Positions 38,276 through 50,705 of a stretch of DNA of 64,000 nucleotides are shown piece by piece. This DNA comes from Terriglobia bacterium. Lineage in GTDB: Bacteria > Acidobacteriota > Terriglobia > JAIQFV01. The stretch lies in the NCBI GenBank assembly GCA_028716525.1, contig JAQUPQ010000021.1:1-64000 (forward strand). Direction: 5' to 3'. Positions within the stretch are counted from its first letter, which is position 1. Each line of letters starts with the position of its first letter. The translations under genes and the position numbers were made by a program. The notes under the pieces are model-generated. The model was given only the letters and a program-made list of their open reading frames with translations. It did no database searches and was not told the DNA's origin.

Positions 38276-38880
38276 TGGTTACGCTGCCCGGTCCCTTTCA
38301 CTGACTAATTAGAATCCGCTATTTTACAACAGAAGAAGCTGCAGGCGGCGGATTTTTCGATTCCGCCACCAAAGCATGCAGTTTTGCCAAACTCCAACTT
38401 GGAGTGCGCCCCGAACAATCGGGGCGCTTTGACTCGTCGCCGAGCACCACAGAGAATTGTCCTTACCCGATAGTTCCAACCAAAGCGCCGCCACAGGCGG
38501 CGCACTCCAAACGCTGCCGCGGATCATTGGGATGGTCAGTCTTGCGGACGGATAAAATCGCCCAGCCCCGGCAGGGGCGACAGAAACCTCTCCTATTTTC
38601 GCGGCAGCCCGACCTGTTTCCGAGGCAGTCACTTATGGTCGCCGCGGCGACCAGTCAGGAGCATGAAAATGAACTCGGGCACTTAAAGCGACAGTTTTCT
38701 GGTCCCTGCAAGGGACATCTTCAATGGCCCAGTCCCCCGCGGGGGACTGGACTGACAATCTTGCGGACGGATGAGATCGCCCAGCCCCGGCAGGGGCGAC
38801 AGAGACCTCTCCCATTTTCTAAGCAGGGATAATGTCGAGCAAGGCTGGGTTGAAAGAAGTAAAGGAACTTTCGAATCAGA
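38276..38880. repeat. Palindrome island with 61-bp direct repeats
   Basis: About 600 non-coding bases are filled with short palindromes. Members of the TTGGAGTGC/GCTTTGG family lie at 38399-38431 and, inverted, at 38480-38510. Two 61-bp direct copies (38540-38600 and 38759-38819, four mismatches), each with GCCCAGCCCCGGCAGGGGCG, flank TCCCTGCAAGGGA and a perfect 22-bp palindrome at 38729-38750. No coding frame is supported. The island lies between the radical SAM gene and tRNA-Leu. Confidence 0.8.
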
Positions 38881-38968
38881 TGGTGCAGGAGGAGGGAATT
38901 GAACCCTCAAGGATCAAAGATCCGCCAGATTTTGAGTCTGGTGCGTCTGCCAATTCCGCCACTCCTGC
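38881..38968 (-). tRNA. tRNA-Leu (anticodon CAA)
   Basis: This 88-nt tRNA includes an encoded CCA. The acceptor stem GCAGGAG pairs with CTCCTGC, and the D-arm, long variable arm (GGATCTTTGATCC) and T-loop (GGTTCAATTCC) are present. The anticodon stem CCAGA/TCTGG holds the loop CTCAAAA, so anticodon CAA (38932-38934) reads UUG leucine codons. The long variable arm is typical of tRNA-Leu. Confidence 0.95.
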
Positions 38969-39022
38969 AAACGAAAAAAGCGGATGTCAATATACTCAGG
39001 CGCGAAAGGTCTGTCAATCTTG

Positions 39023-39595
39023 TCAGTGCAGGGGATAATGCTCGTCCAGCTCGAGGTTCAGCTCCAGCACATTCACGCGAGCCTCTCCGAGAAATCCGAA
39101 TTGCCTGCCCTCGGTGTGCTGGCGCACCAACTGTCGAACTTGGTCGGGCGTGATCCTGCGCGCCCGGGACACGCGCAGCAATTGAAATTCTGCAGCTGCC
39201 GGAGAAATGTGAGGATCCAATCCGGAAGCCGAGGTGGTCACCAAGTCAACGGGGACCGGCGCGGCCTTGTTCTCGGCTTGAAGTGCGGCTGCGTCGGAGG
39301 TCACGCGTTCGATCAATTGACGATTCGTCGGGCCCAGCTGCGATCCATTGGAATTAGCCGCATCATAGCCGCTCCCCGCAGCAGAAGGCCGGGAATGAAA
39401 GTAGCCTGCTCCTGAGAAGGTCTGCCCGATGAGAGCGGATCCAACAATCTTCCCGTCCTTCGAAATCAGTTCCCCATTGGCCTGTTTCGGAAACAATACC
39501 TGAGCAATTGCAGTCACCACCAACGGATAAATGAGTCCCAACAGAATGGTTGTTGCGAGGGTCATCAATACGGCCGTGAGAAGGTTCTTCTTCAT
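39023..39595 (-). CDS. kdpC: Potassium-transporting ATPase subunit KdpC
   Basis: KdpC is the single-pass subunit that stabilises the KdpFABC potassium pump. The 190-residue protein has an N-terminal membrane helix (about 8-33) and a periplasmic domain with GQTFSGAGYFHSRPSAAG, SNGSQLGPTN and the family's C-terminal VNVLELN. Length is normal. It is the last gene of the kdp operon; the ATG lies 12 bp after the kdpB stop, with GAAAGGA in front. Confidence 0.95.
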   Translation of the reverse strand: MKKNLLTAVLMTLATTILLGLIYPLVVTAIAQVLFPKQANGELISKDGKIVGSALIGQTFSGAGYFHSRPSAAGSGYDAANSNGSQLGPTNRQLIERVTSDAAALQAENKAAPVPVDLVTTSASGLDPHISPAAAEFQLLRVSRARRITPDQVRQLVRQHTEGRQFGFLGEARVNVLELNLELDEHYPLH

Positions 39596-39607
39596 GGAAA
39601 ATTCCTT

Positions 39608-41635
39608 TCAGGCTAATCCAACCCTCGTGATCAGCATGTCGATCAGCTTGATCCCAATAAACGGGATGATGATCCCCCCCACGCCATAGATCCACAGGTT
39701 GCGGCGCAACAGAGCGGCAGCGCTCATGGGGCGATACCTCACACCGCGCAGCGCCAAGGGAATCAAGACGATAATGATTAACGCATTGAATATCACTGCC
39801 GAAAGGACGGCCGATTCTGCGGTGCGAAGATGCATAATGTTCAAGGTATTCAACACGGGAAACGTGCCTGCAAACATCGCCGGGATGATGGCAAAGTACT
39901 TCGCCACATCATTGGCAATCGAGAACGTGGTCAGAGAACCGCGAGTCATCAGCAACTGTTTGCCGATGCCCACGATTTCGATGAGCTTGGTAGGATTGGA
40001 GTCGAGGTCCACCATGTTGCCGGCCTCTTTGGCGGCTTGTGTGCCGGTGTTCATAGCCACGCCGACATCGGCTTGAGCCAGCGCCGGCGCGTCGTTGGTT
40101 CCATCGCCAGTCATAGCCACAAGCTTTCCGTTTTCTTGCTCTCGTCGGATGAGACGCATTTTATCCTCGGGTGTGGCTTGTGCCAAAAAATCATCGACGC
40201 CGGCTTCGCGAGCAATGGCGGCGGCCGTCAACGGATTGTCGCCGGTGATCATGACAGTCCGGATGCCAATGGCGCGAAGCTGTTCGAAGCGCTCGCGCAT
40301 GCCGCCCTTCACGATGTCCTTCAATTCAATGACCCCAAGTGCCCCGCGGGCCTTTTCAGCCACAACCAGCGGGGTTCCACCGGACCGCGCGATTCGTTCA
40401 ACGCTTTCTTTCACCTCGCCCGGCATAGGACGACCATTTTGCAAAAGGTAATTGGTGATGGCGTCTGCCGCCCCTTTGCGAATCTCGAAACCGTTAAGGT
40501 CTACGCCTGACATGCGTGTCTGCGCGCTGAACGGGACAAAATGAGCGTTCCGGGAACTTAATTCGCGCCCTCGCAATCCGTATTTCTCTTTCGCCAGCAC
40601 CACGATGGAACGTCCCTCGGGGGTCTCGTCGGCCAGCGAAGACAGTTGAGCCGCATCCGCAAGTTCCTGCTCATTCACACCCGGTGCGGCAAAAAAATGA
40701 GAGGCTTGACGATTTCCGAGGGTGATGGTTCCCGTCTTATCCAATAGAAGGGTGTTGACGTCACCGGCTGCTTCGACGGCACGACCAGACATGGCCAACA
40801 CGTTGTGTTGAACCAACCGGTCCATCCCGGCAATGCCGATGGCAGAAAGCAATCCACCAATGGTGGTTGGAATCAAACAAACCAACAGCGAGACCAGGAC
40901 AAATATGGTTTGCGGTGATCCCGAGTAAATGGCAAAGGGCTGCAGCGAAACAACGGCCAAAAGAAAAATGATCGTCAATCCGGCGAGCAAAATGTTGAGG
41001 GCAATTTCGTTGGGCGTTTTTTGCCGCTCCGCGCCTTCGACCAATGCGATCATGCGATCCAGAAACGTTTCGCCGGGATTGGAAGTGACCTTCACCTTGA
41101 TTCGGTCGGATAAAACGCGTGTGCCACCCGTCACCGCGGAACGGTCACCGCCTGCTTCCCGGATGACTGGCGCAGACTCCCCGGTAATGGCTGATTCATC
41201 CACCGAAGCCACGCCCTCGACGATTTCGCCGTCGGATGGAATCAATTCCCCGGCCGAGACGAGCACCAAGTCTCCGGTTCGCAATTTTGAACTCGGCATT
41301 TTTTCAGTTTCGCCATTCTCTAAAAGCCGATTGGCCACCGTCTCCGACCGTGCTTTGCGCAGGGTGTCGGCCTGGGCCTTACCGCGCCCTTCCGCCATAG
41401 CTTCGGCAAAATTGGCGAACAGCACCGTGAACCACAGCCACAGCGTGATCTGCAGGTTGAACTTGAAAGCAGCGCCGCCTTTGACCAACAGCGCCGTGGT
41501 AATCACGCTGCCGATCTCCACTACAAACATGACCGGATTGCCCATCATCTTTCGTGGGTTTAGCTTTCGCACGGCGTCCCACATCGCTCGTCGAACGATC
41601 TTCCATTCCCAAAGCGCTCTTCTTTTCTTTGCCAT
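39608..41635 (-). CDS. kdpB: Potassium-transporting P-type ATPase subunit KdpB
   Basis: KdpB hydrolyses ATP to drive potassium uptake. The protein has 675 residues from the ATG at 41635; an open frame runs further upstream but only over kdpA. The P-type signatures are present: [12 protein letters not shown] with the phosphorylated Asp, the TGES actuator loop, [13 protein letters not shown] and the Kdp-specific [10 protein letters not shown] in the first helix. The gene is in the usual kdpA-kdpB-kdpC order with a 12-bp gap from kdpA. Confidence 0.96.
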
Positions 41636-41646
41636 AACAGAATCCT

Positions 41647-43446
41647 TTAGAAAACCTTGCCCGCGCCCATGAGAAGGTGCTCCAAGATGGGCCCGAGACT
41701 GAGCGCCGGAAAGAACGTCAAAGCCCCCAGGATCAAAATCACTCCTATTAACAGCACCGTGAAAAGAGGCGTGGTCACAGGAAATGTTCCCAATGAAGGC
41801 GGAACATATTTCTTGCGTGCCAGATTGCCGGCAATCCCCAGCATCGGGATGATCATGAAAAACCGGCCAACCAGCATAATGAATCCCATGGTCGTGTTGT
41901 ACCAAAGCGTGTTGGCATTAAGTCCCCCGAACGCGGAACCGTTGTTGCCGGCCCCCGAGGTAAACGCATACAAAATCTGCGTAAACCCATGTGGCCCTGG
42001 ATTGGTGATGCCCGAGGTGCCGAATCCCTTCACAGACGAAATGGCTGTGAAAACAAGAATGACAAGCGGAAATACAAGTGCCACCAACATGGCCATCTTC
42101 ACGTCGTAGGCCTCTATTTTCTTTCCGAGATACTCCGGCGTCCGGCCCACCATCAGCCCCGCGATGAACACCGCCAGCACAACATAGATCAACATTCCAT
42201 ACATCCCGGCGCCTACCCCGCCGAAGATGACTTCGCTCAACATAATGTTCACGAGTGGGACCATGCCGCCCAAGGGAGTATAGGAATCATGCCATCCGTT
42301 GATGGCGCCACAGCTTGCATCGGTTGTGACCGTGGCGAACAAAGCGGAGTTCGCGATGCCGAACCGAACCTCCTTGCCCTCCATGTTGCCGCCCGGTTGC
42401 AAGGCACTCACGCGCTGGTTCTCGCCGATGAGCAGTGGATTACCGTGCGCCTCTGCCCAATAGGCCGTCGTCACACCGGCCAGGAATAAGGTCGCCATTG
42501 CCGCCCACACGGCCCATCCATGGCGCTGGGAGCCCGTCATACGCCCAAGCGTGTAAGTGAGGCCTGCGGATATGGCGAAGATGGAAAACAATTCGAGGAG
42601 ATTTGAGAAGGGAGTCGGATTTTCAAACGGATGAGCACTGTTCGCATTGAAGAATCCCCCACCATTCGTTCCCCACTCCTTGATGATTTCCTGCGACGCC
42701 ACCGGCCCTTGTGCAATCGTTTGCTCCGTTACGGTGTCCATAAGCACTTTGCCGTCCGAACCGACAACCGGCTTACCATCCCGACCGACCCTCTGCACCT
42801 GCTGAGGTACTACCAACTGGGCAGTGTCATAAGGCCTGAAGTTCTGGACCACGCCTTGAGACACCAACAGCAATGCCCCGACCAAGCAAAATGGCAGCAA
42901 TACCCAGAGACAGCTGCGAACCAGGTCGACCCAGAAGTTTCCAATGGTTTCCGTTTGGCGACGAGCAATACCCCGAATAAAAGCAATCGCCAGTGAGATA
43001 CCCACCGCCGCCGAGGCGAAATTGTGATAGGCCAAACCGGCCATTTGGGTGAAATAGCTCATCGTCGATTCGCCCGAGTAAGCCTGCCAGTTGGTGTTGG
43101 TTGTGAACGAAGCCGCCGTATTGAACGCCAAATGGGCCGGGTTAACAGCAGTAAACTTCTGCGGATTGAAGGGCAAAAAAAACTGAACGCGCTGGATGAG
43201 GTACAGGAGGAGCATAGAAACCAGGCTGAATAGCAGCATTGACACGGCATACTCGGTCCAACGCATCTCGTGATTCTCATCTACTCGCGTCAGCCGATAG
43301 AGGAGCCGCTCTATCGGCCGTAACACGAGATCCATAAACGTCCGCTCCCGGCTGAACACGCGCGCCAAGAAGACACCCAGGGGCTTGGTTACAAGAAGGA
43401 CCAGCGCAAGGAAGAACAGAATTTGGAGCCATCCATTGACTGTCAT
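41647..43446 (-). CDS. kdpA: Potassium-transporting ATPase subunit KdpA
   Basis: KdpA is the potassium-selective membrane subunit, related to Trk/KtrB channels. The 599-residue, polytopic protein shows selectivity-filter regions with [49 protein letters not shown] and [13 protein letters not shown]. Each of the four repeats keeps the family pattern. The ATG directly follows the kdpF stop (TAACATG), so the subunits are coupled in translation. Confidence 0.96.
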
Positions 43447-43447
43447 G

Positions 43448-43537
43448 TTAGAGCTTCTCCGGACGCAATAAGGCGTAAAACAAATAAATCATCAACAGAA
43501 CACTCACGGCGAGAACGATTCCCGTTTCCAGATTCAT
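43448..43537 (-). CDS. kdpF: KdpF, small subunit of the Kdp pump (29 aa)
   Basis: The frame runs from ATG at 43537 to TAA at 43448. The peptide [20 protein letters not shown], then YALLRPEKL, has one membrane helix and the typical C-terminal LRPEKL. KdpF binds KdpA and stabilises the complex. AAGGGGGG lies 6 bases before the start. Its stop is one base from the kdpA start. Confidence 0.93.
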
Positions 43538-43549
43538 TTCGACCCCCCT

Positions 43550-43636
43550 TCACTTCATCCGATCACAAAAGCGCACATAACCGATCGACAGGATGAAGAA
43601 CGCAACCGTCACGACGATGTAGATTATGTCTTGCAT
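43550..43636 (-). CDS. Additional 28-aa membrane peptide at the head of kdpFABC
   Basis: The frame runs from ATG at 43636 to TGA at 43550, with GAGGAG 7 bases upstream. The peptide begins MQDIIYIVVTVAFFILSIGY and ends VRFCDRMK: one helix and a short charged tail. It lies 12 bp before kdpF. Similar short ORFs are known to precede kdpF in some genomes, though usually unannotated. It could be an extra subunit or assembly peptide of the pump; this is inferred from position and from having its own ribosome site. Confidence 0.72.
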   Translation of the reverse strand: MQDIIYIVVTVAFFILSIGYVRFCDRMK

Positions 43637-44020
43637 GAATCATCTCCTCGAACGAGATTGCAATTTCCAAACTTCGCTTCGCAATAAGGCCTGGGCAATG
43701 GCTCCTCTGTCGTCCCGCAAGGCGGGACTTCACTTACCTGTTGGCTCTTTTACCCGGCACTTACGTGCCGGGCTAAAGATCTGTTGTCCTCCTGCGGAGG
43801 ACTCACTCACCGCCAATTCACCAGTCCCGATGCAATCGGGACGCCGGATCTTTAGCCCCGAACGTGAGTTCGGGGTAGAGTGCAAAGTCGGTGGTGCAAG
43901 TCCCGCTTTGCGGGACGACAGACGCACCGCAACTTTCACGTGAATCCCCCGACTTCGCCATCCCAACTGCATCTTCCATCCTCAATTCAAATCTCAAGGA
44001 TCCCTGAGACAACAGCTCAG
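43637..44020. repeat. Nested palindrome island between the porin and kdp genes
   Basis: Between about 43706 and 43921 stand six hairpins: TCCCGCAAGGCGGGA, CCCGGCACTTACGTGCCGGG, GTCCTCCTGCGGAGGAC, GTCCCGATGCAATCGGGAC, CCCCGAACGTGAGTTCGGGG and GTCCCGCTTTGCGGGAC. The first and last are inverted copies with the same CTGTCGTCCCGC flank. The second and fifth share GGGCTAAAGATC in opposite orientation, so the island is nested. No gene is seen. It may process or terminate the porin-kdp transcript. Confidence 0.75.
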
Positions 44021-45700
44021 CTAGAATTTCACCAGAATGGCCAGGTTAAACCGGTTTTCCGTCTTGCGGAGATCCGGTGTGAACCCCGGCACGAAAGAGC
44101 CGGGCGCACCTGTATTTCCCCCCGGTGGCGTAATTCCACCGCCTCCGGAAAAATAGGGAACGTTCGCGGCTCGATGATTAAACTCCCAGCGGAAAGTGAT
44201 GTACTGGCTGGGCATGTAATCAAACGTTGCAGAAGCATCCCAAGCCTTGTAGGGATCGCCGGGATTTTCGGTGAAGTAAGGTGTTCCGGACGCCGCTGTG
44301 GCGCCATTGATGGGCGGCAAGAGAACCAGATAGCGTCCCGGATTGTTGATGGCGCCGCCACCCACGGTCACGGCATACAGGTCCTTGTGGAACCAGACGC
44401 GGTTGTACAACATGAAACCCAAAAAACTCTGCTTGGGGCCGCCCGACCGATTGCCAAAGCAACTCACGCCACCACCACTCTCGCATCCTGCATCGACGGT
44501 CAATGAGAACGCCGCCTTGTCCACCATCCGATCCGGCCGGTCATAATATTTGATCTGAATGCTATCATCCGAATGCCAACGTGTGCGGCCGGTCACTCCC
44601 AACGTGTCGCGGCCAACACCGTATTGATTTCCTAGAATCGACAACCAACCATTGGGGCGCCACAACACTTGCATTCCCAGGCCGGGTCGTTTGTTGAATT
44701 TGCCGTACGATTGCCATCCGTTCACAAACCAACCTTCAAATTTCAACTTGTCAGTTGGAAAGGCTTGCACCCGAAGGCCATTAAAATACCAGGGAGTGTT
44801 CGAAGAGACATACGATGGCTGATAGGCCCAGTTGTCAAAGTTGTAGTAACTGAACAGTCCGACGTAGGACATGAAGATTCCTGCGTCTACATTGATCCCG
44901 TGCATCACATCAAAATGATATCCGCCGTAGGCTTCCGAAACGTAACGATAAGCCCCATCCAAATTCCATTGACCGCGAGCCGTGCTGGCGTCGTTCCGCG
45001 GTGTGGTTTGTGAATACATCCCGAATTGCGTCATAAGGCGGGCGCGCACATTGTCAAAGTGAAAATCGCCGCCCACGCCGAGCTGCGTCATCTGAAATTC
45101 ATTGGCACGAAAAACCTCGCTTGAGCCACCGATGGTGTTGTCCTGGGGATGGTTAAAATCGTAAACATAGTCAACGTCGGTTCTGATTTCCGGCGTGAAG
45201 AATTTAGTATCGAGCGCTGGAGTCTTTGTACGCGGATTGCCGTTCAGCCAAGTAAAGTCCGCGAATGCAAACGGTTCGGCCTTTGGAGTTTTGGTCGGGG
45301 CTGGCAAGGCGGACGCTGCTTGTTCGGCTGCTTTCGCTGTCGACCCCGCTGTATTTGTGCCGGCGAAGCGGGATGCGCTTGCCGTTGACGGTGGCGCGGA
45401 TTCAACCTTTTCAATGGCTCCGCTAACGCCTGATCGCTGCTTAAGCTGAGCTTCCAGTTCCTGGATTCGAGCGCGCATCACCTCGAGTTCCTGGAGAATC
45501 TTGGCATCTCGATCATCGGCAGGGCTGGCGTTCGTCGCCGTCCTGTCCGCTGACCGATCGGAGGAATTTGTTGGCGCATTCTGATTCTGCGCGATTGCCT
45601 GTGCCAACAAGCTTCCAGGGTGTGCTCCCAGACCCGCGGCGACCACCGCTACAGCAACAATTGCAATGGGGACGGTGAACCCGCAACGTTTGATATTCAT
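44021..45700 (-). CDS. Outer-membrane beta-barrel protein, BBP2/OmpL-like porin
   Basis: The protein has 559 residues from the ATG at 45700. It has a signal peptide (about 5-33) and an Asn/Ala-rich spacer. A short coiled coil follows (about 60-85, EVMRARIQELEAQL), then a Pro/Ala linker and a barrel of alternating aromatic beta-strands from about residue 150 (FADFTWLNG, FFTPEIRTDVDYVY) to the C-terminal NRFNLAILVKF. The coiled-coil-plus-barrel form fits the BBP2 porin group. Its place between kdpE and kdpFABC suggests a role in potassium or osmotic response, perhaps ion passage across the outer membrane. A direct repeat resembling a KdpE site lies upstream. Confidence 0.8.
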   Translation of the reverse strand: MNIKRCGFTVPIAIVAVAVVAAGLGAHPGSLLAQAIAQNQNAPTNSSDRSADRTATNASPADDRDAKILQELEVMRARIQELEAQLKQRSGVSGAIEKVESAPPSTASASRFAGTNTAGSTAKAAEQAASALPAPTKTPKAEPFAFADFTWLNGNPRTKTPALDTKFFTPEIRTDVDYVYDFNHPQDNTIGGSSEVFRANEFQMTQLGVGGDFHFDNVRARLMTQFGMYSQTTPRNDASTARGQWNLDGAYRYVSEAYGGYHFDVMHGINVDAGIFMSYVGLFSYYNFDNWAYQPSYVSSNTPWYFNGLRVQAFPTDKLKFEGWFVNGWQSYGKFNKRPGLGMQVLWRPNGWLSILGNQYGVGRDTLGVTGRTRWHSDDSIQIKYYDRPDRMVDKAAFSLTVDAGCESGGGVSCFGNRSGGPKQSFLGFMLYNRVWFHKDLYAVTVGGGAINNPGRYLVLLPPINGATAASGTPYFTENPGDPYKAWDASATFDYMPSQYITFRWEFNHRAANVPYFSGGGGITPPGGNTGAPGSFVPGFTPDLRKTENRFNLAILVKF

Positions 45701-45923
45701 ATTTGAATCCAAACCCTTTCTTGTGCAGTAGTGTTTGAGGTGTGAATTGAGGGACCGGACAATCAGATTTGACAACACAGTTTGATTGGAAAGTATAAAG
45801 AGCCATTCAGCGCTTATCGTTTTGTGAACCGAAGGCTTCAACTGCCGACGTTGTCGGTTATCAATCTTTCGACGCCGGCCTGGATATCAGATCACGGGAG
45901 CCATAAAATCGGTCTAAAAGGTT

Positions 45924-45940
45924 GGTAAAAAGTTCGTAAA
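45924..45940 (-). promoter_or_regulatory. Candidate KdpE-binding direct repeat upstream of the porin gene
   Basis: On the minus strand TTTACG (45935-45940) and TTTACC (45924-45929) recur with an 11-bp period, the spacing used by OmpR/PhoB-family regulators. The half-site resembles the TTTACA part of the E. coli KdpE box. A TTTATACTTT stretch at about 45790-45799 looks like the other part of that box and could include the -10. The function is inferred. Confidence 0.4.
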
Positions 45941-45963
45941 GAAAGGAAGAGGAGGCGGATTGA

Positions 45964-46659
45964 TTATCCGGCGGGGTTAAAACGATATCCGACCCAAGGC
46001 TCGGTGAGAATGTATCGAGGCGAGTTGGCTTGGAGTTCGATCTTCTTGCGCAACTGCCCGATGAAAACACGCAGATACTCGGGCTGTTCGACGCTGTAGG
46101 CGCCCCACACGGCAGAAAGCAAAGTCCGGTGGGTAACGACTTTCCCGGCATTTCGCACGAGGTACAGAAGCAGATCAAATTCCTTGGGGGTGAGTCGAAC
46201 GTCCAGTCCGCGGACCTTGACCTCGTGCCCGCCGACATCAACCTGAAAATCACCTATCTGAATATGGGGTAATGCTTCCGAAGGGGTCAGTGGCTGTCGC
46301 CGCAAATGCGCTCGGACGCGCGCCATCAGCTCGTTCATGTTGAAAGGTTTTGTAACGTAATCGTCCGCGCCGGCATCCAACGCCTTGACCTTCCACTGCT
46401 CCTGTCCCCGCACCGAGAGAATCAAGATGGGACAGTCTCCCAATGCCCGGACGCGCCGGCACAGCTCCACGCCGTCCAGATTCGGCATCATCAAATCCGT
46501 GATGATCAAGTGGGGCACCCAGTTTTTCATGATCTCAAGGGCCATCTCGCCGTCATTGGCGACCCGCACTTCATACTGATGGGCGGTCAACGCCGTACGC
46601 AGGACGCGCGTAATTTGCGGCTCATCATCCACCACCAGAATGCGTTGATTCTCGGACAT
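45964..46659 (-). CDS. kdpE: Response regulator KdpE (OmpR/PhoB family)
   Basis: The 231-residue protein has a receiver domain with DDE acidic pocket (11-13), the phosphorylated Asp55 in ITDLMMPN, and the conserved Lys in VTKPF. A winged-helix DNA-binding domain follows (about 130-229, with LTPKEFDLLLYLVRNAGKVV and the C-terminal VGYRF). KdpE switches on kdp transcription when phosphorylated by KdpD. The gene stands 12 bp after the KdpD sensor half on the same strand, while the kinase half is transcribed the other way. Confidence 0.93.
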   Translation of the reverse strand: MSENQRILVVDDEPQITRVLRTALTAHQYEVRVANDGEMALEIMKNWVPHLIITDLMMPNLDGVELCRRVRALGDCPILILSVRGQEQWKVKALDAGADDYVTKPFNMNELMARVRAHLRRQPLTPSEALPHIQIGDFQVDVGGHEVKVRGLDVRLTPKEFDLLLYLVRNAGKVVTHRTLLSAVWGAYSVEQPEYLRVFIGQLRKKIELQANSPRYILTEPWVGYRFNPAG

Positions 46660-46671
46660 TGAGGAAGCCCT

Positions 46672-47781
46672 CTATTGGCTGACAATGTGAACATCCACGG
46701 CCGGTGCATCGCGAAGGAAGCGTTGGATGGCCGTCATATAAAGGTAGCGTTGCCATCGGGAGCGGGCGGAACGCCCGAAGACGACTTGAGTGATGTGCTT
46801 TTCGCGAACAAAGTCAGCCACGGCTTTCGCCACGTTCGGCCCGTCCAGGCGTCGAACCGTGGCCCCCAGATTCTCCGCAAAGCGAATGTTTTCCAAGAGT
46901 GTTTTCTGGTTTTCCGGAAAATCGTCCTCGCGGACATTGACATAAACCACCAAAAGTTCCCCCGCAATGGCCTGGGCCATGCGCGATCCCCGGGCGATCA
47001 AGTATTGCGAGGCAGGATTGGAACTGATGCACACCGCGATACGTTCGCGCGCCCCCTTATGCGCCTCCCAATGCTCGCGTTCGGCGTAAGCTTCCAAACT
47101 TCTATCCACCACCTGCGTGACCTGGCGGAGGGCCAACTCGCGCAAGGCGATTAAGTTCCCCTGCCGGAAAAAATTGGCCAGCGCTCGTCCTGCCCGATCA
47201 GGAGGATATACATCGCCGCGTTGCATGCGGCTCTCGAGAGCCTGCGGGGTCAGGTCGGCCAGAACGATTTCATCGACACGTTGCATTACCCAATCCGGAA
47301 CCGTCTCCCGCACTTGAATTCCTGTGATTTGTCGAACCGTCGGCCCCAGGCTCTCGATATGCTGAACGTTCATCGTCGAGAGGACATCGATGTGATGGTC
47401 AATCAACTCCATGACGTCCTCGTATCGTTTGCGATGTTTGCTGCCATCCACATTGGTGTGGGCCAGTTCGTCGACTAAAGCGACCTGGGGTTTTCGAGCC
47501 AAGATGGCATCCACATCCATTTCCTGAAAAAGGGTTCCTTTGTATTCCAATGAACGCGGCGGAACGGATTCAAGTCGCGAAGCCAGTTCCCCGACTGCCG
47601 CGCGTCCATGAGTTTCAACCACGCCCAGCACGATATCTTCTCCCCGGCTGTGCCGCCGGATGGCCTCGCTGAGCATGTTATAGGTCTTGCCGACACCGGG
47701 AGCATACCCAATGAAAAGTTTGAAGATGGACTTCCGATCGGGGCTCGCTTCTTCCAACCATTGTTCCGGCGTCTTGGGCAT
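46672..47781 (-). CDS. kdpD: KdpD sensor half: KdpD N-terminal ATP-binding domain plus USP domain, no kinase
   Basis: The protein has 369 residues from the ATG at 47781. It contains the cytoplasmic KdpD domain with the Walker A-like GYAPGVGKT (25-33), VVETHGR, DELAHTN and NVQHIES, then a universal-stress-protein domain (about 245-369) ending in FGRSARSRW and VDVHIVSQ. In standard KdpD of about 900 residues these are followed by four membrane helices, a GAF and a histidine kinase domain. Here the protein stops after the USP, and the rest is encoded by the divergent gene at 47843. kdpE follows 12 bp downstream. The -10-like GATAAT exactly 7 bases before the ATG and the absence of a ribosome site suggest a leaderless mRNA. 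Confidence 0.9.
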   Translation of the reverse strand: MPKTPEQWLEEASPDRKSIFKLFIGYAPGVGKTYNMLSEAIRRHSRGEDIVLGVVETHGRAAVGELASRLESVPPRSLEYKGTLFQEMDVDAILARKPQVALVDELAHTNVDGSKHRKRYEDVMELIDHHIDVLSTMNVQHIESLGPTVRQITGIQVRETVPDWVMQRVDEIVLADLTPQALESRMQRGDVYPPDRAGRALANFFRQGNLIALRELALRQVTQVVDRSLEAYAEREHWEAHKGARERIAVCISSNPASQYLIARGSRMAQAIAGELLVVYVNVREDDFPENQKTLLENIRFAENLGATVRRLDGPNVAKAVADFVREKHITQVVFGRSARSRWQRYLYMTAIQRFLRDAPAVDVHIVSQ

Positions 47782-47788
47782 GGCCCGT

Positions 47789-47794
47789 ATTATC
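47789..47794 (-). promoter_or_regulatory. Candidate -10 element for a leaderless kdpD sensor-half transcript
   Basis: GATAAT on the minus strand is followed by 7 bases (ACGGGCC) and then the ATG at 47781, the geometry of a leaderless start. No good -35 is visible. Confidence 0.45.
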
Positions 47795-47829
47795 CTAAAC
47801 GAAAGTTCAAAAGTCGAATCCCGCGCGTA

Positions 47830-47835
47830 TATAAT
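47830..47835 (+). promoter_or_regulatory. Candidate -10 element for a leaderless kdpD kinase-half transcript
   Basis: TATAAT on the plus strand is followed by 7 bases (GGCTGCC) and the ATG at 47843. TTCAAA at 47806-47811 could act as a weak -35 with an 18-bp spacer. The arrangement mirrors that of the divergent gene. Confidence 0.5.
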
Positions 47836-47842
47836 GGCTGCC

Positions 47843-49297
47843 ATGAGAGATCATCTCTGGAAGCTCTCCTATCGTTTCGCCATGACGTTGATCTCCGTGC
47901 TGTTGGTGACGCTTCTTTACCGCCAGGCGATTCATGTGAATCCCACGACCGTGGCCCTGACATTTTTGTTAATGGTCCTCGTGGTCTCTGCGACCTGGGG
48001 CCTTCGGGAGGCCGTCTTTCTGGCGCTGATCGCGACGTTGGCTTTCAACTACTTTTTTCTTCCGCCGGTCGGGACCCTTACCATTGCCGATCCCCAGAAC
48101 TGGGTGGCTCTGTTTGCTTTTCTTGTGACGGCGGTGATTGCCAGCCAGTTGTCGGAGCGCGCCCGGCGAGAGGCCTTGGATGCTCACCGCCGCCGCCGCG
48201 AAGTGGAACGACTGTATGCCTTCAGCCAACAATTGCTGGTGACGGAAAACGTGTTACAGTTGTTGAATGCGATCCCCAATCACATCGTACGGTCATTCGA
48301 TGTCTCCGATGCTGCTTTGCTGCTTCAAAGCAGCGGTGAGATATACCGGTCCGGGCCGCATACGCGGAAACTGGAATTGGATGAAATGAAAGCCACGTTG
48401 GCACGCGGCGAGATGACTGTTGATTTCAACCGGAATATCTGTCTGGTGCCGGTGCGATTTGGTGTGCGGACGGTCGGGGCTTTCGCCGTGGCCGGATCTC
48501 TGTCGCGTGAAACGCTGGAAGCCATCGGCGGATTGATCGCCATCGCCATCGAGCGCGCCCACACCGTGGAATCTCTAACCCGCGCCGAAGCTACACGCGA
48601 GAACGAAAAGTTGCGGACCGCCTTGTTGGACGCGGTCACCCATGAGTTCAAGACGCCGCTCACGGGAATCAAAGCCTCCGTGACCAGTCTTCTTTCGAAT
48701 TTTGAATTGAAAGAAGCAGACCGTCTCGAACTGTTGACCGTCATCGATGAGGAATGCGACCGCTTGAATCGTTTGGTCGGAGAAGCGGCCGAGATGGCCA
48801 AACTCGAGGGTCACGAAATTCAGCTTGAAATTCAACCTCACCCCATTCAGGACGCCATCCATGCGGCGTTGGATTATTCCAAACAAGCCCTGAGCGACCA
48901 CCCGGTCGAGGTGAGCATTCCTGCTGACCTGCCCACGCTTTCTATGGATCTGGGCCGGATTCAGGAAGTGCTGAGTCACCTTCTGGAAAACGCTGCGAAA
49001 TATTCTCCTGTGGGTTCGTCCATTCGATTGACCGCAGAAACAAGTGGCGGCGCGATTACTGTCAGCGTGTCGGACCGGGGCATGGGCATCGACGACTTCG
49101 AACAAGCACTCATTTTCGACAAATTTTATCGCGGACGAGAACAACGCTACTCGGTTCAAGGAACCGGTATGGGACTTGCAATTGTGAAAGCCATTGTGGA
49201 AGCTCATGGGGGAACCGTCGGCGTGACCAGTCAACTCGGCCGCGGATCTGTTTTCCATTTTACCTTGCCGCTCCCAAGCGGCTCTCGTCCTCATTGA
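47843..49297 (+). CDS. kdpD: KdpD kinase half: DUF4118 membrane domain, GAF-like domain and histidine kinase
   Basis: The protein has 484 residues from the ATG at 47843; an ATG at 47834 would add three. Four membrane helices (about 10-105) form the DUF4118 domain with the usual NYFFLPPVGT. A GAF-like region follows (about 125-245). The HisKA domain has His267 in AVTHEFKTPLTG, and the HATPase has LLENAAKYSP, DRGMGI and GTGMGLAIVKAIVEAHGG. This is the part of KdpD missing from the divergent protein at 46672-47781. The two must meet as separate polypeptides, or the kinase uses its own signal. It is the only gene of the locus on the plus strand. Confidence 0.9.
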   Translation: MRDHLWKLSYRFAMTLISVLLVTLLYRQAIHVNPTTVALTFLLMVLVVSATWGLREAVFLALIATLAFNYFFLPPVGTLTIADPQNWVALFAFLVTAVIASQLSERARREALDAHRRRREVERLYAFSQQLLVTENVLQLLNAIPNHIVRSFDVSDAALLLQSSGEIYRSGPHTRKLELDEMKATLARGEMTVDFNRNICLVPVRFGVRTVGAFAVAGSLSRETLEAIGGLIAIAIERAHTVESLTRAEATRENEKLRTALLDAVTHEFKTPLTGIKASVTSLLSNFELKEADRLELLTVIDEECDRLNRLVGEAAEMAKLEGHEIQLEIQPHPIQDAIHAALDYSKQALSDHPVEVSIPADLPTLSMDLGRIQEVLSHLLENAAKYSPVGSSIRLTAETSGGAITVSVSDRGMGIDDFEQALIFDKFYRGREQRYSVQGTGMGLAIVKAIVEAHGGTVGVTSQLGRGSVFHFTLPLPSGSRPH

Positions 49298-50251
49298 GAG
49301 TGAAAAATTATAGTGACGCTTCAGGGCTCGCCCCGGCAGGATGCGCTCTGGTAGCCGCTCCGATCCATCGGAGCGGAGAGCCGCAACCTGTAAGAAAAAT
49401 GCCGCGATCCCCACAAGCACGATCGCGACTACCAAAGCCTGCCCGACTCCTCATCCGCTTCAAAGGGAGGCCACTCAATGCTGTCCAAACTGGCTGGGTT
49501 CAAATTGTGACCCTCTGTGAATATTGGCGAAAATGCCTTCATTCTTGAAGATTTCACGTCCAGGTCTGAACCCACGGGGAGGTTTGATGCCATAAAAAGC
49601 AAACAACATTCCTCCCCAGAGGAAATGTTTCCCCTAGTCCAGTATATCTGCGAGGGACGAACTGGGTTCGAGTCTGCTTCAGCGGAATTGCTTTCCCTCA
49701 GCCCGCTCCGATCTATCGGAGCGGGAACGAATACAACGAATCAATTGATTTTTCATAGTCCCGTTCACGGGGCTTGGTTTCCAGGAGCCTTCCCTTGAGG
49801 GGGCGGAATGGAATCGTTATCTAGAATCTCTGTCGTCCCCTGAACGGGGCTCAAAACAAAACCAGAAAAACAATAACGTTTTGGCCCTCCTTCCCCGCCG
49901 GTCAACCGGCGGGCTGAGAGAAGCAAGCCTCGTAAACGAGGCTCAAGACTGGAACGTCCCGCCCCACGCCTGCTCAAATTGGCCGAGCAAGGGGGCATTC
50001 GCACGAATTGAGCCATCGATCCTAAAGAAACAAAACTCTCGATCAAAAAGCGGCCTCGTTCCACTGAATCCTGCTGTCCATCTCCGACAATGTCGGCTCC
50101 CCAGACCTCCAAAACGCGGGTACAAATCCGCGCCTGATTAATTCTAGTTTCCTTTGAAAGACCCTTGGCGCCCTCGCTCGTGGACACACGAAATTCATGC
50201 CCCCAAGCCGAACCGGAGGACCATTTCGGGCCTAGGAATGGCGTGCCTTTC
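49298..50251. repeat. Palindrome-rich non-coding region
   Basis: No gene is supported here. Perfect palindromes are dispersed through it: CCGCTCCGATCCATCGGAGC plus GG (49355-49376), preceded by the constant flank CGCTCTGGTAG; a CCCGCTCCGAT stem at 49702-49725; CCCGCCGGT/ACCGGCGGG (49894-49913); and AGCCTCGT/ACGAGGCT (49926-49943). A CTGTCGTCCC flank at about 49828 matches the kdp-side island. An open frame of 140 codons at 49765-50187 on the minus strand lies across these hairpins and is judged spurious. Confidence 0.7.
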
Positions 50252-50327: not shown

Positions 50328-50705
50328 GGGGGCGAAACGGTTTCGACGGGAATCGTGAAGCTCAAGAGGCATGCCGAGGTCGTCACGTTCCTCGTTAAAC
50401 ACGTGGCACAATACAACTGCCAACACTGAATTGGCTCTCGCTGCTTAATTAAGCAGTGCGTCTCCTCTCGCGAGCCCGCGCGCGGGAACGAGGCGTCGAC
50501 TCAGCGGGATAAGTTCCGGGGCCGCCTGAACCCGGGAATGAAAATTTAGGGCTGGCTGACCTTCACTCTTGCCGGTTCATAAGAAGGTTGGCGAGATTCT
50601 TCTCCGGCGGCGCAGGCTGCCGTGAAAGATGTGAAACGGCTAAGCATGTAGGCTTTTGAAGCGGATCATTTTCGGACGCGGGTTCGACTCCCGCCGCCTC
50701 CACCA
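50328..50705 (+). ncRNA. ssrA: Transfer-messenger RNA (tmRNA)
   Basis: tmRNA rescues stalled ribosomes and adds a degradation tag. The 378-nt gene has the conserved 5' end GGGGGCGAAACGGTTTCGAC and a 3' tRNA-like end with GGGTTCGACTCCC and CGCCTCCACCA. The acceptor strands GGGGGCG and CGCCTCC pair with one G-U. The tag frame (50419-50448) reads ANTELALAA and ends TAA, followed by the GCTGCTTAATTAAGCAG hairpin after the stop. Resume codon GCC is the best guess. The tag ends in LAA as needed for ClpXP/ClpAP recognition. Confidence 0.95.

What the first reader, a model, noticed from the sequence alone, without database searches (positions are those of the whole stretch)
46672..49297. KdpD split into divergent sensor and kinase genes
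The KdpD/USP part and the DUF4118-GAF-kinase part are both complete at the domain level but lie on opposite strands, so a frameshift or sequencing error cannot explain it. The sensor stays with kdpE. Signalling must use two proteins, or the sensor half has gained a separate role such as nucleotide sensing.
Basis: partly seen in the sequence, partly recalled or inferred. Interest (0 to 1): 0.55.

Follow-up and report, generated by a model that had tools for sequence, protein, structure and literature searches.

The report
Split KdpD: two head-to-head potassium kinases
In this soil bacterium the usual potassium sensor kinase KdpD is made as two proteins from two genes facing away from each other, one probably switching the potassium pump's genes on and the other probably switching the pump itself off; this two-protein form is already described for this bacterial phylum, so the locus is a clear example of a known kind.

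Summary
KdpD-N/Usp (46672-47781, minus) and a DUF4118-GAF-HisKA-HATPase kinase (47843-49297, plus) are complete, separate and head to head. No second KdpD-N and no second kdp pump was found in the held genome. It is no artefact: 127 of 141 genomes of the class with this KdpD-N type have the same head-to-head pair, none codirectional, and all 30 sampled rows form one clade. [quoted passage not shown] coli KdpD is an atypical serine kinase that shuts off KdpB. The residues tested are kept here, except the adenine-stacking Trp, which is Tyr. Added here: one origin of the head-to-head form, back-to-back probably leaderless promoters, a regulator swap within the window's family, and, in sister families, a tandem KdpD-N copy lacking the catalytic glutamate.

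The parts
46672..47781 (-). kdpD-N: KdpD domain + Usp domain, 369 aa, predicted atypical serine kinase (ASK) for KdpB
   Evidence: PF02702 295 bits, PF00582 27.6 bits; NF038185 KdpD_non_kinase 374 bits, below its cut-off of 550; PDB 2r8r and 7ji4; Walker A G25-X5-G31-K32-T33, Walker B D104-E105, R185
47843..49297 (+). split histidine kinase: DUF4118 (TM) - GAF - HisKA - HATPase_c, 484 aa; alternative in-frame ATG at 47834
   Evidence: Pfam; GAF by structure model against E. coli KdpD GAF 4y2f, Z 14.7; phospho-acceptor His267 numbered from ATG 47843
47782..47842 (.). divergent intergenic region with back-to-back sigma70-like promoters, both -10 boxes close to the start codons (probably leaderless)
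   Evidence: TTCAAA-18-TATAAT on + at 47806-47835 and TCGACT-17-GATAAT on - at 47817-47789, 2 found against 0.2 in shuffles; conserved -10-to-start spacing in relatives
45964..46659 (-). kdpE response regulator, 12 bp downstream of kdpD-N
   Evidence: Response_reg + Trans_reg_C; phospho-acceptor Asp55
44021..45841 (-). BBP2-type outer-membrane porin between kdpE and the pump genes (upstream start uncertain)
   Evidence: PF07642 135.6 bits
43550..43636 (-). 28-aa predicted one-TM small ORF upstream of kdpF
   Evidence: read from sequence; similar small ORF in 37 of 56 kdpA upstream regions
43448..43537 (-). kdpF, 29 aa (name by position and by recalled resemblance)
   Evidence: read from sequence; no family search run
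41647..43446 (-). kdpA
   Evidence: PF03814, TIGR00680
39608..41635 (-). kdpB, with the TGES motif whose Ser is the predicted ASK target (E. coli Ser162)
   Evidence: TIGR01497 1088 bits; TGES; start inferred from the listed ORF 39608-41905
39023..39595 (-). kdpC
   Evidence: PF02669

Best explanation
This is the split, two-protein form of KdpD. (1) The plus-strand protein is a complete membrane histidine kinase: four TM helices (DUF4118), a KdpD-type GAF domain, then DHp and CA. At low K+ it should phosphorylate KdpE and switch on kdpFABC. [quoted passage not shown] (3) Both genes start from one short region with back-to-back promoters. Shown here: domains, kept residues, gene order and its conservation. 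Shown by others in E. coli or Deinococcus geothermalis: the serine kinase and its c-di-AMP control. Inferred: all activities in this organism.
For: Domains. KdpD-N keeps G-X5-GKT, D-E and R185 in 80 of 80 loci; KdpB keeps E and S of TGES in 52 of 52 assessable of 80; HK keeps His in 76 of 77 assessable; KdpE keeps Asp in 76 of 76 assessable. [quoted passage not shown] E. coli KdpD 1-230 alone phosphorylates KdpB, and mutation of D109 or E110 abolishes it. A DAC (c-di-AMP synthase) gene is present. The one genome-wide PF02702 match and the only KdpB over cut-off share this locus. 12 of 12 relatives without the pump in the flank have KdpB elsewhere.
Against: No experiment exists for this organism. 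The E. coli adenine-stacking Trp39 is Tyr here (Tyr 55, Phe 22, His 3 of 80). The S. aureus c-di-AMP motif SXS-X20-FTAXY is only half kept: the Ser244 and Tyr271 equivalents are there, but Ser246, Phe267, Thr268 and Ala269 are not, so the c-di-AMP step is weak. R185 = E. coli R190 rests on a constant numbering offset, not on an alignment with the E. coli sequence.
Confidence: 0.78

Rival explanations
1. The two proteins re-form one KdpD in trans: KdpD-N/Usp binds the HK and sets its kinase/phosphatase balance, and the HK's K+ sensing gates the serine kinase. Not exclusive of the main reading.
For: The pair is head to head in 127 of 141 genomes and 76 of 80 loci. Among 41 loci with all six genes, KdpD-N and HK distances correlate best (0.91; 0.64 after removing the pump's distances; KdpD-N with KdpE 0.75 and 0.38). 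In L105 the divergent HK has lost its His (V) and a second HK-KdpE pair sits by the pump, yet the HK stays beside KdpD-N. An Anabaena KdpD-N is recalled to work with the E. coli KdpD C-half (Ballal 2005, not seen).
Against: Neighbouring genes co-inherit without binding. L105 is a single MAG; 30 of 30 HK hits nearest to it keep His. PMC11018627 argues that separate chains point to separate control.
Confidence: 0.3
2. KdpD-N has become a pure nucleotide (c-di-AMP or ATP) sensor that acts on KdpE or the HK and has no KdpB kinase role.
For: A Usp domain is present, a DAC gene is in the genome, two motif residues shown to matter for c-di-AMP binding are kept. NCBI calls the nearest family 'non-kinase potassium sensor'.
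Against: All catalytic residues tested are kept in 80 of 80 loci; lost catalysis would be expected to show, as it does in the tandem copies of sister families (D-E to D-G in 12 of 12).
Confidence: 0.08
3. Artefact or recent lesion: an assembly inversion or a mis-binned contig that cut one kdpD in two.
For: The genome is a draft of 104 contigs; KdpD-N is only 42-43% identical to the copies of the same family.
Against: The same head-to-head pair is in 127 of 141 genomes and forms one supported clade; each protein has its own start, promoter-like boxes and intact ends; a neighbouring acyl-CoA dehydrogenase is 87 and 86% identical to the same-family genomes against 74% for the next, so the contig belongs.
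Confidence: 0.02

Closest known systems
Split ASK/HK KdpD of Acidobacteriota and Chloroflexota (PMC11018627, sections 8 and 9 part 1 seen)
   Same: Same domain cut: KdpD/Usp on one chain, TM/GAF/DHpCA on the other; kdpE present.
   Different: The parts of the paper seen do not discuss strand, promoters or a single origin; its supplements were not seen.
Deinococcus radiodurans kdp (PMC5716572, passages seen)
   Same: kdpD-N separate from the kinase; the SK-RR operon lies in opposite orientation, immediately upstream of kdpBAC-kdpD-N.
   Different: There kdpD-N follows the pump genes and the RR is with the SK; here kdpD-N and kdpE lead the pump strand and kdpD-N itself faces the HK.
E. coli KdpD (full length)
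   Same: All domains, in two proteins.
   Different: One chain in E. coli; in the class tree the fused Acidobacteriota KdpD form their own clade.
Short KdpD/Usp of Deinococcus geothermalis (PMC11018627)
   Same: KdpD/Usp only, DAC in the genome.
   Different: Here an HK of KdpD type and KdpE are encoded alongside; the c-di-AMP motif is only half kept.

Membership tests
Split KdpD (ASK and HK on separate chains) | KdpD + Usp domains on one chain without HK domains | tested here: met
Split KdpD (ASK and HK on separate chains) | separate TM/GAF/DHp/CA histidine kinase | tested here: met
Split KdpD (ASK and HK on separate chains) | no full-length KdpD in the genome | tested here: met
   one PF02702 match; genome 96.5% complete
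KdpD atypical serine kinase | Walker A (G-X5-GKT) and Walker B Asp-Glu | tested here: met
   80 of 80 loci and the window
KdpD atypical serine kinase | Trp/Arg pair for adenine (E. coli W39/R190) | tested here: inconclusive
   Arg kept (by numbering offset), Trp is Tyr
KdpD atypical serine kinase | Ser and Glu of the KdpB TGES target | tested here: met
   window and 52 of 52 assessable loci
KdpD atypical serine kinase | phosphorylates KdpB | not testable with these tools
   needs a kinase assay
c-di-AMP-binding KdpD (S. aureus type) | SXS-X20-FTAXY motif in Usp | tested here: not met
   only Ser244 and Tyr271 equivalents kept
NF038185 KdpD_non_kinase | score over the curated cut-off | tested here: not met
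   374.3 bits against 550
KdpD-type histidine kinase | phospho-acceptor His and KdpD-like GAF | tested here: met

The most novel reading that the evidence does not exclude
The head-to-head pair is a two-protein sensor in which the histidine-kinase protein also gates the serine-kinase protein in trans, so that one K+ signal sets both transcription and pump shut-off across two chains. The partner role can outlive histidine-kinase activity (L105) and has been elaborated in sister families into a serine kinase plus a pseudokinase encoded in tandem.
Probability: 0.2. Interest if true: 0.55.

Novelty: new member of a known kind. Interest (0 to 1): 0.22.

Why it matters
The split gives a clean natural way to assay the two KdpD activities apart: histidine kinase to KdpE, serine kinase to KdpB. 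It also corrects the naming: the piece left with kdpE is probably the pump's off-switch, not its sensor. The side result, a conserved serine-kinase/pseudokinase tandem in related families, was not found in the papers searched and makes a direct test possible of whether dead KdpD-N copies regulate live ones.

Tried and rejected
Rejected: assembly or frameshift artefact. Rejected: orphan regulators without a pump; 12 of 12 genomes whose flank lacked kdpABC have KdpB elsewhere. Tried without result: a c-di-AMP riboswitch ahead of the pump (no ydaO-type Rfam hit among the matches in 38500-50000; none at gathering score in 43400-44100). Pfam found no GAF, and the whole-HK fold comparison was filled by the kinase core and barely tested the GAF part, so the GAF stretch was modelled alone. 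Stop-to-stop frame length is a poor test of fusion: of 150 rows printed, 10 have frames of 850 aa or more, but G165 and G025 among them are head-to-head splits. Papers searched without a hit on point: 'KdpD' with 'pseudokinase' (5 papers hold both words, 4 listed, each naming the second once; none opened); 'kdpFABC', 'Acidobacteria', 'KdpD'; 'KdpD', 'Acidobacteriota', 'serine kinase' (only PMC11018627).

Rows dropped before counts: the tree used 69 of 125 KdpD-N rows; the head-to-head class was thinned from 83 to 30, and L058, L079 and L010 (truncated neighbourhoods) were left out. Loci that were refetched larger were used once. Of 141 genomes, 12 had no HK among the rows printed and 2 had it elsewhere (G348 on another contig, G137 2957 bp away). 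In one search, 26 of the 80 extrapolated KdpD-N starts are not start codons and were still counted in n. In one search, 41 of 79 loci had all six genes.

Full report
What is there. On the minus strand, 46672-47781 encodes 369 aa with a KdpD domain (PF02702, 295 bits) and a Usp domain (27.6 bits). On the plus strand, 47843-49297 encodes a kinase with DUF4118, HisKA and HATPase_c. Pfam shows no GAF even at E 1, but a model of residues 126-252, numbered from ATG 47834 (29 sequences, pLDDT 91.8), aligns with the solved GAF domain of E. coli KdpD (4y2f, Z 14.7, rmsd 2.7, 122 aligned, 19% identity). kdpE begins 12 bp behind kdpD-N; then come a BBP2-type porin, a small ORF, kdpF, kdpA, kdpB and kdpC, all on the minus strand. 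The start codons of kdpD-N and HK are 61 bp apart.

Is a full-length KdpD elsewhere? The window is G000:C21:1-64000 of a 4.2 Mb, 104-contig, 96.5% complete genome. PF02702 has one match, this one; KdpB has one match over its cut-off. DUF4118 has two matches over its cut-off, this HK and one on C22, plus one below it.

Is the split real and general? In a scan of named genomes, 80 loci came back, 79 from Acidobacteriota records and one Streptomyces. In 76 of 80 the HK lies head to head with kdpD-N within 400 bp. The other four are L058 and L079 (contig ends before the HK), L082 (the HK is in two pieces, the near one being head to head) and the Streptomyces locus (fused). These loci were picked by likeness to the window. 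The less biased survey is the class: 399 genomes, of which 277 have PF02702. Of 141 genomes with a KdpD-N at least 55% identical to the window's, 127 have the HK head to head within 400 bp, none has it codirectional, 2 have it elsewhere, and 12 had no HK among the rows printed (coordinates typed).

One origin. A tree of 69 KdpD-N rows (quick IQ-TREE, so support is SH-aLRT only; long branches present) puts all 30 head-to-head rows on one side of one branch (100*); seven fused Acidobacteriota KdpD form another group (100*), as do codirectional split copies with a tandem partner (100*). The two genomes of the window's own family carry yet another type: there porin, KdpA, KdpB and KdpC are 73-88% identical to the window's, but KdpD-N, HK and KdpE are only 42-43, 38-39 and 58-59%, all codirectional, with an extra histidine kinase (L131, L132). 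The closest KdpD-N copies, 73%, are in family f9, while a neighbouring acyl-CoA dehydrogenase is 87 and 86% identical to the same-family genomes and 74% to the next. The regulatory module has therefore been exchanged around a conserved pump, by transfer into one lineage or the other; which one is not settled.

How it most likely works. PMC11018627 (outline, abstract, passages, section 8 and section 9 part 1 seen) shows that the KdpD domain of E. coli KdpD is an atypical serine kinase: residues 1-230 alone phosphorylate KdpB Ser162, and mutation of Walker A, D109 or E110 abolishes it. [quoted passage not shown] This is the window's arrangement. In the window and in 80 of 80 loci KdpD-N keeps G-X5-GKT, Asp104, Glu105 and Arg185; the Trp39 position is Tyr in 55, Phe in 22, His in 3. 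KdpB keeps Glu and Ser of TGES in 52 of 52 assessable loci, the HK keeps His in 76 of 77, KdpE keeps Asp in 76 of 76. The plain reading is: HK reads K+ and drives KdpE; KdpD-N shuts the pump at high K+.

The Usp input. The genome has one diadenylate cyclase (DAC) match. The S. aureus c-di-AMP motif SXS-X20-FTAXY (PMC4686210, passages seen) is half kept: against the S. aureus KdpD Usp chain (7ji4), the window has Ser and Tyr at the two positions shown to matter, and Asn, Leu, Leu, Val at the other four. So c-di-AMP control is possible, not supported.

Promoters. The 61-bp region holds two sigma70-like sites with adjoining -35 boxes: TTCAAA-18-TATAAT (plus) and TCGACT-17-GATAAT (minus); shuffles give 0.2. 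Each -10 ends about 7 nt before a start codon. In relatives a [TG]ANAAT box ends 4-12 nt before the kdpD-N start in 42 of 80 (27 at exactly 7 nt; shuffled mean 1.3, maximum 5), and on the HK side a box is followed by a start in 45 of 80 (shuffled mean 3.1, maximum 8). PMC3160421 (passages) lists leaderless genes, marked by such a box about 12 bp upstream, in 3 of 3 Acidobacteria. I infer leaderless, co-expressed divergent genes; no transcript data exist here.

Do the halves still act together? KdpD-N and HK distances correlate at 0.91 over 41 loci, 0.64 after taking out the pump's, which fits a partner but also mere linkage. In six loci (L095, L097, L098, L100, L101, L104) kdpE has moved to the HK strand while the pair stays. 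In L105 the HK has Val for His while the ATP-binding motifs stand, and another HK-KdpE pair lies by the pump; 30 of 30 nearest HK hits in the class keep His, so it is one case.

Side result. In several sister families the kdp operon ends in two tandem KdpD-N genes. In 12 of 12 such upstream copies Walker B is Asp-Gly in place of Asp-Glu, with GKS in Walker A where that part is covered (11 of 12); the partner copy keeps Asp-Glu. The 12 form one clade (100*), on a long branch. Since E110A kills the E. coli enzyme, the upstream copy is predicted to be a pseudokinase. Searches for this in print gave nothing on point.

Verdict. It is a well-conserved example of a known kind.

Noticed in passing
L133-L136, L144, L145 and L014, L022, L025, L029, L030, L035 (other families of the class): Two tandem KdpD-N genes behind the pump; the upstream copy has Walker B Asp-Gly instead of Asp-Glu in 12 of 12, so a predicted kinase-pseudokinase pair.
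   Followed up: partly
window 43550-43636 (-): A 28-aa, probably one-TM small ORF just upstream of kdpF; a similar small ORF lies within 500 nt upstream of kdpA in 37 of 56 loci.
   Followed up: partly
L131, L132 against window 39023-49297: Same-family genomes share porin and pump (73-88% identity) but have a different, codirectional regulator set with an extra histidine kinase: the regulatory module was swapped.
   Followed up: partly
L105:8474-9907 (-): The divergent HK has lost its phospho-acceptor His (Val) but keeps its ATP-binding motifs; another HK-KdpE pair stands by the pump.
   Followed up: partly
L095, L097, L098, L100, L101, L104: kdpE sits behind the HK instead of behind kdpD-N and the pump genes converge on it, with the head-to-head pair unchanged.
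   Followed up: no
window 44021-45841 (-): A BBP2-type outer-membrane porin lies between kdpE and kdpFABC; matched in 20 of 80 loci, also next to the pump in L131 and L132.
   Followed up: no
window 43753-43803 (+): Sub-threshold Acido-Lenti-1 RNA match (33.1 bits, gathering 37) in the porin-kdpF gap, on the strand opposite the operon.
   Followed up: no
window 50328-50705 (+): tmRNA gene, tag ANTELALAA, about 1 kb past the HK.
   Followed up: no
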